In this document: positions 46,839 through 57,039 of the stretch, one piece after another
How the letters are laid out: every line of letters starts with the position of its first letter
How positions within the stretch are numbered: position 1 is the first letter of the stretch
Assembly (NCBI RefSeq): GCF_021531595.1
Contig: NZ_JADYUD010000003.1
Location: forward strand, 62,001 to 126,000
Direction of reading: 5' to 3'
Source of the DNA: Fusobacterium perfoetens
Lineage (GTDB): Bacteria > Fusobacteriota > Fusobacteriia > Fusobacteriales > Fusobacteriaceae
DNA: 64,000 bases
Notes under the pieces: generated by a model
Databases searched by the model: none
Seen by the model: only the letters and a program-made list of their open reading frames with translations
What the model was told of the DNA's origin: nothing
Position numbers and translations under genes: made by a program

Positions 46839-46866
46839 AGAATCAGGGGCTTATACCCCTGATTCT
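46839..46866. terminator. Terminator between ridA and the short sepF paralogue
   Basis: 11-bp stem agaatcagggg with its complement (46839-46849, 46856-46866), six-base loop, T-run on the minus strand; it overlaps the stop codon of the minus gene. Confidence 0.8.
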
Positions 46867-47170
46867 ATTTATATATTGGAATTATTTCCTCTTCTTCATC
46901 GTATCTTTGACTTACTTTTGATTTATCTACATAATCCATGTAATATTCTTTTGTTTTTGGAATTGTACAGAAAACTTTTTCTCCAGGATTAATTATTTTA
47001 CCTTCCTGAATAAAAATAGCTCCACTTAAAAAATCAAGAATTCTTTGTTGTAAATCTGCTTCAAGACCGAAAAGATTTACATGAACAATCTTATCTTTTT
47101 TTATATATTCTATGCATTTCATACAATCTTCAAATCTTGTGGGTTTAAAAAATACTATATCGTAATCCAT
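46865..47170 (-). CDS. Short SepF-domain paralogue
   Basis: 101 residues, essentially only the C-terminal SepF domain: FEDCMKCIEYIKKDK and QRILDFLSGA align with sepF at 26457, followed by a short acidic tail. The N-terminal membrane-binding helix and linker are missing. It could dimerise with SepF or modulate its polymerisation, or serve another role. Standing alone between ridA and nrnA with its own terminator. Confidence 0.75.
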   Translation of the reverse strand: MDYDIVFFKPTRFEDCMKCIEYIKKDKIVHVNLFGLEADLQQRILDFLSGAIFIQEGKIINPGEKVFCTIPKTKEYYMDYVDKSKVSQRYDEEEEIIPIYK

Positions 47171-48197: not shown

Positions 48198-50141
48198 TTA
48201 AAAGTCATCAGAGAATATTTCTCTTTTTTCTTCTTCAGTCATTCTTGACAGTCCGTCGTTATAAGCATGTTCAGCATTATGTCCAAGTCTTTTTGCCATA
48301 AGGTTCATAACAACTATTTCAACCATGGCTGCAGCATTTCTACCAGATGACATATAAAGTTCAGCTTTATAAACTTCCTTATCAAGTATGACAGCTTTAC
48401 TACTCATATAGTTTATGGAAGTAAGATAATTTTCAGTTGTCTGCTCTTTAATTTCTATTACAGCATCAAGTCTTTTCTTTATTCTTACAGCTCCAAGTCC
48501 ATAAAGAGTTTTTATATCTATAATTCCAAGCCCTCTTATTTCCATAAAGTATGGAAGGTTTGCAGCTCTTCCTACTATATCTCCATTTGTACGCTTTTTA
48601 AATTTAACCATATCGTCAGCAATAAGTCTGTGTCCTCTGTGAATAAGTTCAAGTGCAGTTTCACTTTTTCCTATTCCACTTTTTCCAGTCAGAAGGACTC
48701 CAAATCCATACATTTCAACAAAAACTCCATGCATAGAAACAGAAGGAGCAAAGTGCTGTTCAAGATATGTATTAAGTTTTGCTATTATAAGGGAAGGAAT
48801 TTCCTCTTCAGATTTAAGTAAAACTTTTCCTGTTTTTTCAACAAGTTCTATTATATATTTTGGAACTTCCATTTTACCACAGATGATAATAGCAGGGAAT
48901 TTATAACTGAAAAACTTTTCTAAATTTCTGATTCTTGTTTCTTTATCAAGACTGTTTAAATATTTAACTTCAACTATTGTAAAAATTTGAAGTCCATTAT
49001 TTTCATAAGGTGCTTCATCTAAGTCAAAGTATCCTGAAAGAGCAAGGGCAGGTCTATGAATACTTGTGTCTTTCAGAAATCTTTCATCAGCTATTTCTTC
49101 TCCAATTAATATTTCAAGTCTGTTTTCTTCTGCAAACATTTTTACAGAAAGGCTGTCTTCACCCACGGCTTCTCCACGCTCCCTTCTTTCTTTGTTCTTT
49201 TCAATAAGTTTTTTAGATTCTTCCATAAAGTATCGTGCAGAGTTTACACCCATAGCTTTAAGTCTGTAGTTTATAGCTGCAGTCTCAATAATTACAGCAA
49301 GATTTCTCCCTTTTCTTGCAGGAAGAGTAATTTTTGGAAGCTTATATCCTAAAATATCTTCACGGATATCATCTATTCCCAGTCTGTCATAAAATTTTTT
49401 TTCCTGCCATATTTCAAGTTCAATTATCATATCAACTTTTTTTACAGGTCTTGTGGATTTTATTCCAAAATAGTTTGTAATATTAATATTTTCTTCTCCC
49501 TGCATTTCAAGGAAATAATCTTTTTCAGGGACAAGTTCTGCCTTGCTGTTCATTCCAGAAAGTCCACTTTCTGTTTCTTTTAAATTAAGCCTTGCATCTG
49601 TTATAAATTTATGACCTCTCTCAAGAAGTTCTACAGTAGCTCCTATTTTAAGTTCATCAGGGCCTCTTAAAAGAATTCCTATTCCATATACCTCAAGGAA
49701 AATATGCTCATCAAGCATTCCTTCTCTTCCAAGAGCATTTTTAAGATAGAAATTAAGTTCTCTTATAAACTTTGTTGCCCTCATATTACATTTTAAAATT
49801 ACTTTTTTCTTTTCTTTTGCTACCTCAAGAAGAAGCTTGTGATCTGCCACCTGAGAACTTAAAACCATAGCAGGAAAAGGATAAGAAAAATATTTTTCAA
49901 GAATCTTTCTTTTTTCTGTAGGACATATTCTTGAAAGATAACGGCTTTCCCTTGCTCCCATCACATGAATAGCAGTTTTAAGTTCAAGTGCATCTTTAGA
50001 GAAAAAACCTGTAAGCTCATATCCTGATCTATATATTTCATTTTTATGGAGAGCCTGTTCCAAATCTCCGTCAGCAAGGACTTCAAGATTAAAATGCTTT
50101 ATAATTTGTTTAAGAGTTACTCTTTTTTCATTAAGTTCCAT
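48198..50141 (-). CDS. hprK: Tandem HPr kinase/phosphorylase: pseudo-kinase fused to kinase
   Basis: 647 residues, twice the usual length of about 310-320. Both halves are HprK-like at an offset of 326 residues. The C-terminal half is canonical: Walker A GKSGIGKS (486-493), RGHRLIADD and the signature EIRGLGIIDIKTLYG. The N-terminal half has lost the P-loop (G160-PDELKIG), reads RGHKFITDA and lacks the signature. The active half phosphorylates or dephosphorylates Ser46 of HPr; the N-half may regulate or replace a subunit in the hexamer. In an operon mtnN-folC-(small)-hprK-nrnA. Confidence 0.85.
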   Translation of the reverse strand: MELNEKRVTLKQIIKHFNLEVLADGDLEQALHKNEIYRSGYELTGFFSKDALELKTAIHVMGARESRYLSRICPTEKRKILEKYFSYPFPAMVLSSQVADHKLLLEVAKEKKKVILKCNMRATKFIRELNFYLKNALGREGMLDEHIFLEVYGIGILLRGPDELKIGATVELLERGHKFITDARLNLKETESGLSGMNSKAELVPEKDYFLEMQGEENINITNYFGIKSTRPVKKVDMIIELEIWQEKKFYDRLGIDDIREDILGYKLPKITLPARKGRNLAVIIETAAINYRLKAMGVNSARYFMEESKKLIEKNKERRERGEAVGEDSLSVKMFAEENRLEILIGEEIADERFLKDTSIHRPALALSGYFDLDEAPYENNGLQIFTIVEVKYLNSLDKETRIRNLEKFFSYKFPAIIICGKMEVPKYIIELVEKTGKVLLKSEEEIPSLIIAKLNTYLEQHFAPSVSMHGVFVEMYGFGVLLTGKSGIGKSETALELIHRGHRLIADDMVKFKKRTNGDIVGRAANLPYFMEIRGLGIIDIKTLYGLGAVRIKKRLDAVIEIKEQTTENYLTSINYMSSKAVILDKEVYKAELYMSSGRNAAAMVEIVVMNLMAKRLGHNAEHAYNDGLSRMTEEEKREIFSDDF

Positions 50142-53580: not shown

Positions 53581-56500
53581 TTAAAATCTATAAGAGATTC
53601 CTGCTGTTACTCTTGAGTTATCTCCTTTATCTGTCCAAATCATTTCATATTTTGTATCTACACCAACACCACTTTCGTGTTCGTAGTCAATTCCAATATG
53701 ACCTTCAATTCTGTTATCTGCAATATCTTCTTCTCCTGTAAGAGCTATTTCTTTTCCATAAAGAGTATATCTTGCATCATCTGATTTACTTACATCAGCA
53801 AGAACATATTCTGCTCCAACAGAAAGAGAAAGTTTTCCATTGTATAAATCAAATTCTTTTACAGCATTTCCTCCAAACATTCCTTCAAAGATTGTTACAT
53901 CTTGTTCGTCCATTCTGTAGTTTGCATCACTGCTTTCAACAGCATCTTGATTTATAAGAGTGTATCTTGCACCAAATACTGGCTGAAGTTTTACTGTATC
54001 TGTTACTAAATAATCTTTTTTACCTTTTAAAGCAAATGTTAAAGCATCTGCATCAGATTTTCCACTTGTAATCATATTATAAACACCAGCTGATGTTGCA
54101 AGATTTAAATCAAGTTCACTCTTAGTATATCCAACATTTCCTGTTAAATCAAATCCACCTTGAGTTCTATGTTTTACATAACCACCAAAGTAAGTGTTAT
54201 CTCCGTCAAGTTTTCCTCCACCTTGAATATCAACTTCAGTGTCACCTTGTCCATAAACAACTCCGTATGATGTTGTATCATTTATACCATATTCAAGCAT
54301 ACCAACAGTTCCTGTAATATCTCCATCATATCCTTTAGAAGCTTTTCCACCGTCAAATTCAGTGTCAGAATTTACATATGTACCAAATGCAATCCATTCT
54401 CCTTTTCCTGCTTTTCTTCCAAAATCATCAACAACAGACATATAAGTATCAGTTACATCTTTTGTTACAGCATAACCTGTTGTATAGAATGCTTCAGCAG
54501 TGTTTCCTGCTTTTGTTATCATACCAACAAGTTTACTTTCATCTGAATAGTTTACAGCATCTCTTAATTCTTGATTTCCAGATAATCCACCAAGCATTGC
54601 ATCATAAACAGATTTATAGTCATCAAGTTGTCCATTATATTCTGTTGCATCTTTTACAGTAAGAGCAATTTTTCCATCTTTTTCTTCAACTGCTCCATCT
54701 TTTCCAGTTCCTTTAAATATTACAGCTGCTTTAATATTAGTATCATCTTTAAAACTATAATTTTCTGCAACATTAAATTGTTTTTGAGAAACATTAAATT
54801 TATCTCCTACAACAAATTTAACTTCAGCATCAGTTCCAGTTGTAACTGATAAATCAGCTCCACTTGCCATTTTATCAAGAGAAGTAGTAACATTTCCTTT
54901 TCCATAGTTATTATTCATATCTACATGAAGAGAACCTTTATCTGCAATGTGAAGTTCTGTTTTTTCTCCAGCTTTTGTTGTAGTTCCTCCGTTAAGTTCT
55001 GCATTTTCTCCTATATGCCAACCTTCTCCATTAAGAATTATTTTTTCAGCTCCATTTACTTTATAGTCAAAAGTATTTCCTGCTTCTTTTTTATGTTCAG
55101 CTTCTACTGCTCCAAGAGAAACATTAAATTCGTCATTTCCTGTTCCCATATCAATTATTCCATTATGAGCAGAATTTGTTACAGTAAATTTATCATCATT
55201 TTGCCCTAAAGTAATATTTCCAATATTTTCTGTACTGTCAACTGTAAGTTCTATTTTTTCAGTTGAAGAACTTCCGTCAATTTCTCCTATTTCAGAAGCA
55301 TTTAGTATATTAACTATATTAGCTTTATCATCTCCTGTTGTAAAATCAAGCTCCATTTTTTTAACATTTACTTCTTTATACTTAACATCTGTATAATTTT
55401 TTCCTGCATCTACTAAAATTTCTTCATGTTCATCAGCATTTCTTAATTTTAAAGTTTCAGCAGTTATATCTGTAACTCCTTTTGTATCTTGTAGAGCTAT
55501 ATTTTCAACAAGAGTATTATCATTTTTTCCACCATCAATTTTTCCTATTACTTGTCCTGTTCCTATTACTGTAAGAACTCCATCTTTTCCAAGTTTTACA
55601 GCTGTTGCTCCTGTTGTAAAATCTTCTTGAACAGCATTTATTACAGTTCCTCCGCCTATAACTAATTTTTTATCTGTAACATCTAAAAGAGTTCCTGCTT
55701 TTTGGAAATAACCTGTTATAACTGTATCATCTAAAACAAGAGCATTTCCATTTCCTGTAAATTTATATAAAGTTGTATTATCTCCTGCTGAACTGTCAAC
55801 TACACCTGTTAAAGTTTTTCCTGCTAAATCATTTATCATATTTCCTGTTATTTCAGCTGTTGTATTCTGAGTATAAACAGTTGTTTTAGAAGTATCATTT
55901 TTTAAAGCTGTATTTACATCTTTACTGCTTTCATTTGTAAGATTAATAACTTTTGTATTATTATTTTCATCATATGTAATTCCTGTTACTTTTCCTGTTT
56001 CATTGTCAATACTTCCAGCTTTCAAAACAACACCTTTAATCTCTCCTGTTCCTAAACTTAAATCTTTACCGGATATATCTTTATAAATAATTATTCCTCT
56101 GTCATTAACTTTTCCTGAATAAATAGTATCATCTTTTTTATTATTATTTATAACAACACCATAGTTATAGGCTGTTGAAGAAGTAGTTGTATTTGCTATA
56201 TTTATTCCTTTTGTTGTTAAAATAGTTCCATAATTATAAGTATTCCCTCCTTCATGTCCATTTTTAGTATTAATATACTGTCCTTGGCTTTGAGAAATAA
56301 TATATCCATAATTATATGCTTCGCTTCCTGCTGAATTATTTGTTACCTGTCCTTTAGCCCCTGTGGTTTTTATAAGACCATAGTTATAACCTATCCCTTT
56401 TTGAATATCTTGTCCACGATTAGTAGAAGTGGCATTTAAAACTCCATAGTTATATCCATTTCCACCATTAATAGTTTGAACAGCTGAACTTCCGTTCCTG

Positions 56501-57039
56501 ATTATTATTCCGTGATTATATCCTTCCTCAGAAATTACTTGTCCACCTAAAATAAGTCCATAGTTATTTTTTAATGTTTGTCCTCCAACTATTATTCCAT
56601 AATTATTTATTAAAGAACCACTAGCTTTTAATATTCCAAAATTATTTTCTGTATTTGAATTTGCAGAATTTATATTTTTTAAATTATTTAAAATATTATT
56701 TGAAATATATTGATTTGGTACACTAATATCAGCAGCTAGGTTCCCAACTGATATTTTGCTATTTCCATTTTCCTCTGTTATTGTGATTGTATAATCATTA
56801 TCTGTTTTTCCATTTAACTCAGATAATGAATTAGTTCCCTTTCCATTTAAGAATGTACCTTCTAAGGCTTTTTCTGCTTCCCATTTGTGATATTCAATAG
56901 TTCCTTCTTTATATGGATTTGCTTCTTCTGCAAAAGAAACCATTCCTGTAATAAGAAAAGTAACTACTAACCCCAATGTAATTTTTACTTTTCTTTTAAG
57001 AAATCTTTTAAGTGAATTTTCAATATAACTTTTTCCCAT
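53581..57039 (-). CDS. Type Va autotransporter (putative adhesin)
   Basis: 1152 residues. A long signal peptide (1-37, basic then hydrophobic, cleaved after SFA) precedes a beta-helix-like passenger. Residues about 131-320 hold ten short repeats of the type N-[YFH]-G-[ILV]. The last 270 or so residues form the autotransporter beta-barrel (starts near GEWIAFGTYVNSD, ends GISYRF with a terminal Phe). The passenger is displayed on the outer surface; no protease motif is seen, so an adhesin or surface-layer role is likely. It has its own promoter (57121-57149) and terminator. Confidence 0.85.
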   Translation of the reverse strand: MGKSYIENSLKRFLKRKVKITLGLVVTFLITGMVSFAEEANPYKEGTIEYHKWEAEKALEGTFLNGKGTNSLSELNGKTDNDYTITITEENGNSKISVGNLAADISVPNQYISNNILNNLKNINSANSNTENNFGILKASGSLINNYGIIVGGQTLKNNYGLILGGQVISEEGYNHGIIIRNGSSAVQTINGGNGYNYGVLNATSTNRGQDIQKGIGYNYGLIKTTGAKGQVTNNSAGSEAYNYGYIISQSQGQYINTKNGHEGGNTYNYGTILTTKGINIANTTTSSTAYNYGVVINNNKKDDTIYSGKVNDRGIIIYKDISGKDLSLGTGEIKGVVLKAGSIDNETGKVTGITYDENNNTKVINLTNESSKDVNTALKNDTSKTTVYTQNTTAEITGNMINDLAGKTLTGVVDSSAGDNTTLYKFTGNGNALVLDDTVITGYFQKAGTLLDVTDKKLVIGGGTVINAVQEDFTTGATAVKLGKDGVLTVIGTGQVIGKIDGGKNDNTLVENIALQDTKGVTDITAETLKLRNADEHEEILVDAGKNYTDVKYKEVNVKKMELDFTTGDDKANIVNILNASEIGEIDGSSSTEKIELTVDSTENIGNITLGQNDDKFTVTNSAHNGIIDMGTGNDEFNVSLGAVEAEHKKEAGNTFDYKVNGAEKIILNGEGWHIGENAELNGGTTTKAGEKTELHIADKGSLHVDMNNNYGKGNVTTSLDKMASGADLSVTTGTDAEVKFVVGDKFNVSQKQFNVAENYSFKDDTNIKAAVIFKGTGKDGAVEEKDGKIALTVKDATEYNGQLDDYKSVYDAMLGGLSGNQELRDAVNYSDESKLVGMITKAGNTAEAFYTTGYAVTKDVTDTYMSVVDDFGRKAGKGEWIAFGTYVNSDTEFDGGKASKGYDGDITGTVGMLEYGINDTTSYGVVYGQGDTEVDIQGGGKLDGDNTYFGGYVKHRTQGGFDLTGNVGYTKSELDLNLATSAGVYNMITSGKSDADALTFALKGKKDYLVTDTVKLQPVFGARYTLINQDAVESSDANYRMDEQDVTIFEGMFGGNAVKEFDLYNGKLSLSVGAEYVLADVSKSDDARYTLYGKEIALTGEEDIADNRIEGHIGIDYEHESGVGVDTKYEMIWTDKGDNSRVTAGISYRF

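What the first reader, a model, noticed from the sequence alone, without database searches (positions are those of the whole stretch)
48198..50141. HPr kinase fused in tandem to its own pseudo-kinase
Both halves of the 647-residue protein are full-length HprK-like. The N-half has lost Walker A (GPDELKIG at 160-167), one of the paired Asp residues and the C-terminal signature; the C-half is intact. HprK is normally a homohexamer of identical active subunits, so a fusion would give three active and three dead modules, with possible new ligand sensing in the dead half.
Basis: partly seen in the sequence, partly recalled or inferred. Interest (0 to 1): 0.7.

Follow-up and report, generated by a model that had tools for sequence, protein, structure and literature searches.

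The report
Fused HPr kinase with split duties
In Fusobacteriota the sugar-regulation enzyme HPr kinase is two joined copies that decayed in opposite ways, so that one copy keeps the ATP-handling half of the active site and the other keeps the helper half normally lent by a neighbouring subunit; the pair probably works as one obligate composite enzyme rather than as a live copy tied to a dead one.

Summary
The 647-residue ORF (48198-50141, minus strand) is real: two full-length HprK-like halves, both passing Pfam. The tandem itself is not new; one sentence in PMC2405797 (2008) reports it for F. nucleatum. New here: (1) Essentially every HprK-bearing Fusobacteriota genome held (69 of 98) has it, from one duplication on the group's stem; about 120 HprK genomes of other lineages have single copies. 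(2) The C-half is not intact. Of 46 kinase-domain positions conserved in outside HprKs, 18 survive only in the C-half (all residues 140-210: P-loop, catalytic Asp, MEIRG) and 8 only in the N-half (all 217-294: Arg245 loop, K3-loop Pro, C-terminal region); p = 6e-7. In solved HprK hexamers these two sets come from different subunits of one active site, so the N-half looks like the trans half of a composite site, not a dead module. (3) One reduced genome has a 269-residue version keeping just those two parts. (4) HPr Ser46 is Ser in 35/35 HprK+ genomes and Asn in 20/20 HprK-less ones. (5) A Shine-Dalgarno site plus start codon is conserved at the junction, predicting an extra free C-half. Activity, stoichiometry and the second product are untested.

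The parts
48198..50141 (-). hprK tandem ORF, 647 aa, ATG start, AGGAGG upstream
49194..50141 (-). N-half (residues 1-316): HprK-like, trans-element half
49641..49664 (-). N-half degenerate P-loop GPDELKIG (160-167)
   Evidence: G160, S162, E163 absent in 62/62 N-halves
49371..49415 (-). N-half retained Arg245 loop EIWQEKKFYDRLGID (243-257); W245, R253, G255
   Evidence: R245 62/62, G247 62/62, W237 61/62
49194..49322 (-). N-half retained K3-loop PARKGRN and C-terminal helices (274-316)
   Evidence: P266 62/62, I305 62/62
49172..49175 (-). internal Shine-Dalgarno GGAG at the junction
49164..49166 (-). predicted internal start codon GTG (V326), 5 nt after GGAG; would give a 322-aa free C-half
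48201..49166 (-). C-half (residues 326-647): HprK-like, ATP-binding/catalytic half
48663..48686 (-). C-half intact Walker A GKSGIGKS (486-493)
48612..48617 (-). C-half catalytic D509-D510 (Asp178/Asp179)
   Evidence: 62/62
48519..48551 (-). C-half signature YFMEIRGLGII (531-541), E534 = Glu204
   Evidence: E204, R206, G207, G209 62/62
48405..48449 (-). C-half degenerate Arg245 loop (565-579, KEQTTENYLTSINYM)
   Evidence: R245 in only 3 of 62 C-halves
48336..48356 (-). C-half altered K3-loop YMSSGRN (596-602); P266 lost, G270-R271-N272 kept
   Evidence: P266 0/62, GRN 62/62

Best explanation
This is the HPr(Ser46) kinase/phosphorylase of Fusobacteriota, rebuilt by an ancient gene duplication and in-frame fusion into an obligate composite enzyme. 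In ordinary HprK hexamers each active site is shared: one subunit gives the P-loop, His140, Asp179 and Glu204, and a neighbour gives Arg245, its K3-loop and its C-terminal helix. After fusion each half could drop the part its partner supplied: the C-half kept the ATP-binding/catalytic part, and the N-half kept the Arg245 loop, K3-loop and C-terminal helix and lost ATP binding. The active unit would be an N-half/C-half pair (three pairs per pseudo-hexamer, hence three HPr sites instead of six). A conserved ribosome-binding site and start codon at the junction probably also yields some free C-half. Shown from sequence: the complementary retention, single origin, the natural mini-version, the HPr Ser46 co-loss, and selection on the junction start signal. 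Inferred: catalysis, pairing geometry, hexamer, the second product and its role.
For: Complementary retention: 46 kinase-domain columns at least 90% conserved in 30 outside HprKs; 18 kept only in C-halves, all at residues 140-210; 8 kept only in N-halves, all at 217-294; Fisher p 6.4e-7. The two sets match the two-subunit make-up of the HprK site stated in PMC9399212 (Arg245, Thr294, Leu301, Ile305 of one subunit; His140, Ser157, Asp179, Glu204 of the other). Arg245 is 62/62 in N-halves although its loop is disordered in 1KO7 and 1KKL, so fold alone does not explain it. Natural deletion: genome G067 has a 269-aa ORF in the same neighbourhood (MTAN-like gene upstream, nrnA-like DHH gene downstream) made of the N-half trans module joined to the C-half catalytic core, without either Hpr_kinase_N domain or the dead P-loop core. 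HPr target: Ser46 kept in 35/35 HprK+ genomes including G067, Asn in 20/20 HprK-less genomes. Tree: N, C and outside clades each 98-100% bootstrap, so one fusion. Junction start: SD plus start in 52/62 genes against 3.4 expected elsewhere in the same genes and at most 38 in 200 synonymous shuffles.
Against: No biochemical or structural data. The full-length AF2 model is weak (pLDDT 67.5, pTM 0.41, few sequences) and gives no inter-half geometry. Three close relatives (L032, L040, L041) have an Arg aligned at position 245 of the C-half. Leu301, an HPr-contact residue, is Ser/Thr in N-halves. K3-loop GRN is kept in both halves. The N-terminal domains diverged in a mixed way. HprK losses and Ser46 changes lie in one family, so they are few independent events.
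Confidence: 0.72

Rival explanations
1. One reading: a mixed hexamer with three active C-modules and three dead N-modules, the N-half serving as a pseudokinase with a new ligand-sensing or scaffolding role.
For: N-half lost P-loop, Asp179 and Glu204 yet keeps an HprK fold and some N-half-specific invariant residues such as N198 and K234.
Against: Does not predict that the C-half loses exactly the trans elements that the N-half keeps, nor the mini-version that keeps only the N-half trans module.
Confidence: 0.12
2. The C-half is a self-sufficient kinase that lost phosphorylase activity (K3-loop altered); the N-half is kept only as an oligomerisation scaffold, its Arg loop being a structural relic.
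For: The K3-loop is the segment assigned to dephosphorylation (PMC9399212) and is altered in C-halves.
Against: A disordered loop is an unlikely structural relic, yet W, Y, D, R, L and G of that loop stay near-invariant in the N-half across 19 genera; Arg245 is described in that paper as a catalytic-site residue.
Confidence: 0.1
3. Mainly two proteins: the internal start makes a free C-half HprK that is the main kinase, and the fused form is a minor regulatory isoform.
For: Conserved SD and start codon at the junction; the predicted product has the size of a normal HprK.
Against: The free C-half would lack Arg245, Trp237 and Pro266. The reading frame is unbroken between the halves in all complete copies, and the mini-version of G067 has no junction start codon.
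Confidence: 0.1
4. A narrower rival on the second product only: the junction start signal is a fossil or a translational-pausing site rather than a working start.
For: SD-like motifs inside genes can have other effects; no expression data here.
Against: The start codon is retained as ATG, GTG or TTG in different lineages and the SD exceeds every synonymous shuffle.
Confidence: 0.3

Closest known systems
HPr(Ser) kinase/phosphorylase (HprK/P; TIGR00679; PDB 1JB1, 1KKL, 1KO7, 1KNX)
   Same: Both halves are full-length relatives by sequence, the N-half also by predicted fold; intact P-loop, Asp pair and signature in the C-half; HPr with Ser46 in the genome.
   Different: Two copies in one chain with complementary loss of the cis and trans parts of the shared active site; known HprKs are homohexamers of identical complete subunits.
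Tandem HPrK of Fusobacterium nucleatum (PMC2405797, 2008)
   Same: Same architecture; one sentence in that survey reports two HPrK domains in tandem.
   Different: The passages read do not mention complementary degeneration, group-wide distribution, the mini-version, the Ser46 co-loss or the internal start.
Enzymes with composite sites made of one degenerate and one catalytic paralogue (e.g. F1-ATPase alpha/beta; from general knowledge)
   Same: A paralogue without catalysis gives a trans Arg to its partner's nucleotide site.
   Different: Here both are fused in one chain and the enzyme is a P-loop protein kinase/phosphorylase.
Bacterial genes with internal starts giving a full and a C-terminal product (e.g. 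SpaO, PMC13059759; HrcQ, PMC8553256; titles and abstracts)
   Same: In-frame internal start predicted to give a C-terminal product that may co-assemble with the full one.
   Different: Only predicted here from conserved sequence; no product has been seen.

Membership tests
HprK/P (TIGR00679) | Two-domain architecture Hpr_kinase_N plus Hpr_kinase_C | tested here: met
   twice over
HprK/P (TIGR00679) | Score above the family cut-off (240 bits) | tested here: met
   whole 483, C-half 283.8; the N-half alone (209.7) does not reach it
HprK/P (TIGR00679) | Walker A GxxGxGKS, Asp178/179, Glu204 signature | tested here: met
   C-half 62/62 at the key residues; not met by the N-half
HprK/P (TIGR00679) | Arg245 loop and PVxPGRN K3-loop | tested here: met
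   N-half 62/62 for R245 and P266; not met by the C-half, so met only by the chain as a whole
HprK/P (TIGR00679) | HPr substrate with Ser46 in the same genome | tested here: met
   L103 NGKSIMGLM
HprK/P (TIGR00679) | Homohexamer, kinase and phosphorylase activity, FBP/Pi control | not testable with these tools
   no assay or multimer modelling
Pseudokinase (N-half as catalytically dead module) | Loss of nucleotide-binding and catalytic residues | tested here: met
Pseudokinase (N-half as catalytically dead module) | No role in catalysis | tested here: inconclusive
   retained trans elements argue against; no assay
CcpA-type carbon catabolite repression | CcpA orthologue above the NCBIfam cut-off in the genome | tested here: not met
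   best LacI-family hit 198.8 bits, cut-off 442

The most novel reading that the evidence does not exclude
One gene makes, by a conserved internal start, both a fused N-C protein and a free C-half. They co-assemble into a hetero-oligomeric HPr kinase/phosphorylase with split active sites (cis part in C, trans part in N), so the ratio of the two products sets the number of complete sites: a fused enzyme that evolved by complementary decay and carries its own dosage control.
Probability: 0.4. Interest if true: 0.82.

Novelty: new variant of a known kind. Interest (0 to 1): 0.68.

Why it matters
Homo-oligomeric enzymes with shared active sites are common, but cases in which a fused pair has visibly divided the shared site between its halves across a whole bacterial group are few. 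This one lets the cis and trans roles of the HprK subunit be separated by simple point mutations in one chain, gives a natural 269-residue minimal enzyme to test, and ties the enzyme to its target by a clean Ser46-to-Asn change in relatives that lost it. It also predicts that HprK chemistry needs the neighbour's Arg245, a question about ordinary HprK that this protein makes directly testable.

Tried and rejected
Tandem outside Fusobacteriota: four ORFs that might have been tandems (L108-L111) hold one HprK each; the long ones are open upstream frames. The first alignment of halves with outside HprKs was spoilt by a wrong ORF (L075) and was redone. Scans of viral contigs gave two single HprKs and no tandem. 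The structure papers for 1JB1, 1KKL and the V267F mutant are not in the paper library, so which symmetry axis relates the two subunits that share one HPr could not be read. A search for work on HprK in Fusobacterium found only the 2008 survey. L065 (G056) has a broken copy in a 62%-complete genome; treated as assembly error or pseudogene and not used.

Full report
Observation. The ORF at 48198-50141 on the minus strand is 647 codons with an ATG start and AGGAGG upstream. Pfam Hpr_kinase_N and Hpr_kinase_C each match twice. TIGR00679 matches twice; the C-half alone passes its cut-off (283.8 against 240 bits), the N-half alone does not (209.7). Both halves align to full-length S. xylosus HprK 1KO7. 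An AlphaFold2 model of the N-half (pLDDT 80, pTM 0.62) finds 1KNX and 1KO7 by Foldseek over both domains (TM about 0.64-0.73), so the N-half does model as HprK. The full-length model is weak.

Distribution and origin. In 98 Fusobacteriota genomes 69 have an HprK, nearly always as two matches in one ORF of about 610-670 codons; exceptions are truncated contigs, one broken copy and the mini-version below. Most members of one family (f4) lack it. In a search that also took in 193 genomes beyond those 98, about 120 have HprK and none of the copies listed is a tandem; long frames were checked. A maximum-likelihood tree of 15 N-halves, 15 C-halves and 30 outside HprKs gives three clades with 98-100% bootstrap: one duplication and fusion on the Fusobacteriota stem, then joint descent. 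The tandem was reported for F. nucleatum in one sentence in 2008 (PMC2405797); no other paper in the library treats it.

What each half kept. 62 distinct full-length tandems were aligned with the 30 outside HprKs and numbered as L. casei HprK (anchors His140, P-loop 155-162, Asp178/179, Glu204, Arg245 all fall into place). Of 46 kinase-domain columns conserved at 90% or more outside, 18 are kept only in C-halves: H140, G141, S157, G158, G160, S162, E163, A165, L166, R174, L175, D179, V181, E204, R206, G207, G209, I210. Eight are kept only in N-halves: F217, W237, R245, G247, P266, A281, L286, A294. Fourteen are kept in both. No C-only position lies above 212 and no N-only position below it (Fisher p 6.4e-7). 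R245 is Arg in 62/62 N-halves and 3/62 C-halves; P266 is 62/62 and 0/62. In several lineages the C-half also lacks the C-terminal helix, which the N-half always has.

Why this pattern. In solved HprK hexamers each HPr lies between two subunits: one offers beta-A/His140, P-loop, Asp179 and Glu204, the other its C-terminal helix and Arg245 of a flexible loop; the K3-loop of an adjacent subunit lies by the P-loop (PMC9399212). The positions lost by the N-half are in the first set, those lost by the C-half fall in the second. That is what is expected if the N-half has become the permanent trans partner of the C-half. Inference: in a threefold assembly of N-C chains, N can serve C only if the two subunits sharing a site are related by a twofold axis; this should be checked on 1KKL coordinates, which I could not do.

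Natural mini-version. Genome G067 (1.2 Mb, family f4) has at the same place, after an MTAN-like gene and a short gene and before an nrnA-like DHH gene, a 269-codon ORF (L064:4112-4921). Its first part is a short remnant strand plus the N-half trans module (NWNKEEHFDRLG ... IRIPIKKGRDVGILIEVAVLDYKL ... KIFNKEI); directly after it comes the C-half catalytic core (SVHGVLLE ... GKSGVGKSE ... FIADD ... YMEVRGLGI), after which the sequence decays. Both Hpr_kinase_N domains and the dead P-loop core are gone. The short link between the N-half C-terminal helix and C-half beta-A fits the fact that both touch the same HPr in solved complexes.

Target. The window's genome has two HPr genes: HPr-A next to a ptsI-like gene, with NGKSIMGLM around Ser46, and HPr-B with KGTSLLKLLS. 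HPr-A has Ser46 in 35 of 35 HprK-bearing genomes examined, including G067; in 20 of 20 HprK-less genomes it is Asn (DAKNVFG, DGKNIMG and the like). HPr-B keeps its Ser in both groups. The HprK-less genomes are all of family f4, so this is a small number of events, but it marks HPr-A Ser46 as the target and the mini-version as probably working. No CcpA passes the NCBIfam cut-off in the window's genome.

Internal start. At the junction nearly all tandems have an in-frame ATG, GTG or TTG where the second HprK would have begun, with a Shine-Dalgarno motif before it. Anti-SD pairing of -5 kcal/mol or better is found in 52 of 62 genes; same-size windows elsewhere in the same genes predict 3.4 (at -6: 48 against 1.5). 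Shuffling synonymous codons gives 31.9 on average and 38 at most in 200 trials, so codon choice adds to what the linker residues give. Where Met was lost the codon is still a start codon in the window and in genus g3 (GTG) and in L033 and L038 (TTG). In the window GGAG lies at 49175-49172 and GTG at 49166-49164. This predicts a free C-half of 322 residues besides the fusion. Whether it is made is untested; the mini-version has no such start.

Conclusion. Best reading: an obligate composite HPr kinase/phosphorylase in which the C-half does ATP chemistry and the N-half supplies the trans Arg loop, K3-loop and C-terminal helix, with a likely extra C-half product.

Caution. The HprK family search did not ring in the B. 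subtilis control genome, where HprK is known from the literature, although HPr did. Absence calls from this tool can therefore miss; the Ser46 change independently supports the absences in f4.

Noticed in passing
L173-L193, L195, L196 (HprK-less genomes G064-G096): HPr-A has Asn at position 46 in 20 of 20 HprK-less genomes, Ser in 35 of 35 HprK-bearing ones.
   Followed up: yes
L104:1486-1752 and relatives: A second HPr paralogue (KGTSLLKLLSLGI) is widespread in the group and keeps its Ser even where HprK is absent; its role is unclear.
   Followed up: partly
L064:4112-4921: A 269-codon compact HprK made of the trans module of one half and the catalytic core of the other.
   Followed up: yes
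L065 (G056): Tandem hprK broken by stops/frameshifts in a 62%-complete genome; assembly error or pseudogene.
   Followed up: no
window 46865-47170: A SepF-like cell division protein (Pfam PF04472) encoded downstream of hprK and the nrnA-like gene.
   Followed up: no
window 53581-57039: A 1152-residue ORF near hprK that looks like an autotransporter (repetitive passenger, barrel-like C-terminal end).
   Followed up: no
L105:788-1726: A complete single HprK on a contig filed as viral (IMG/VR), next to genes that look like phage structural genes; probably the host flank of a prophage.
   Followed up: no
L107 (NZ_CP084075.1): A 2.1 Mb Fusobacterium vincentii record labelled as a plasmid in PLSDB carries the tandem hprK and is evidently a chromosome.
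   Followed up: no
L067, L068 (G033, G031): Weak Hpr_kinase_C matches (E about 7e-4) in ORFs of about 310 codons, possibly another P-loop kinase.
   Followed up: no
control genomes: The B. subtilis control did not ring for the HprK families although HprK is known there; a warning on absence calls.
   Followed up: no
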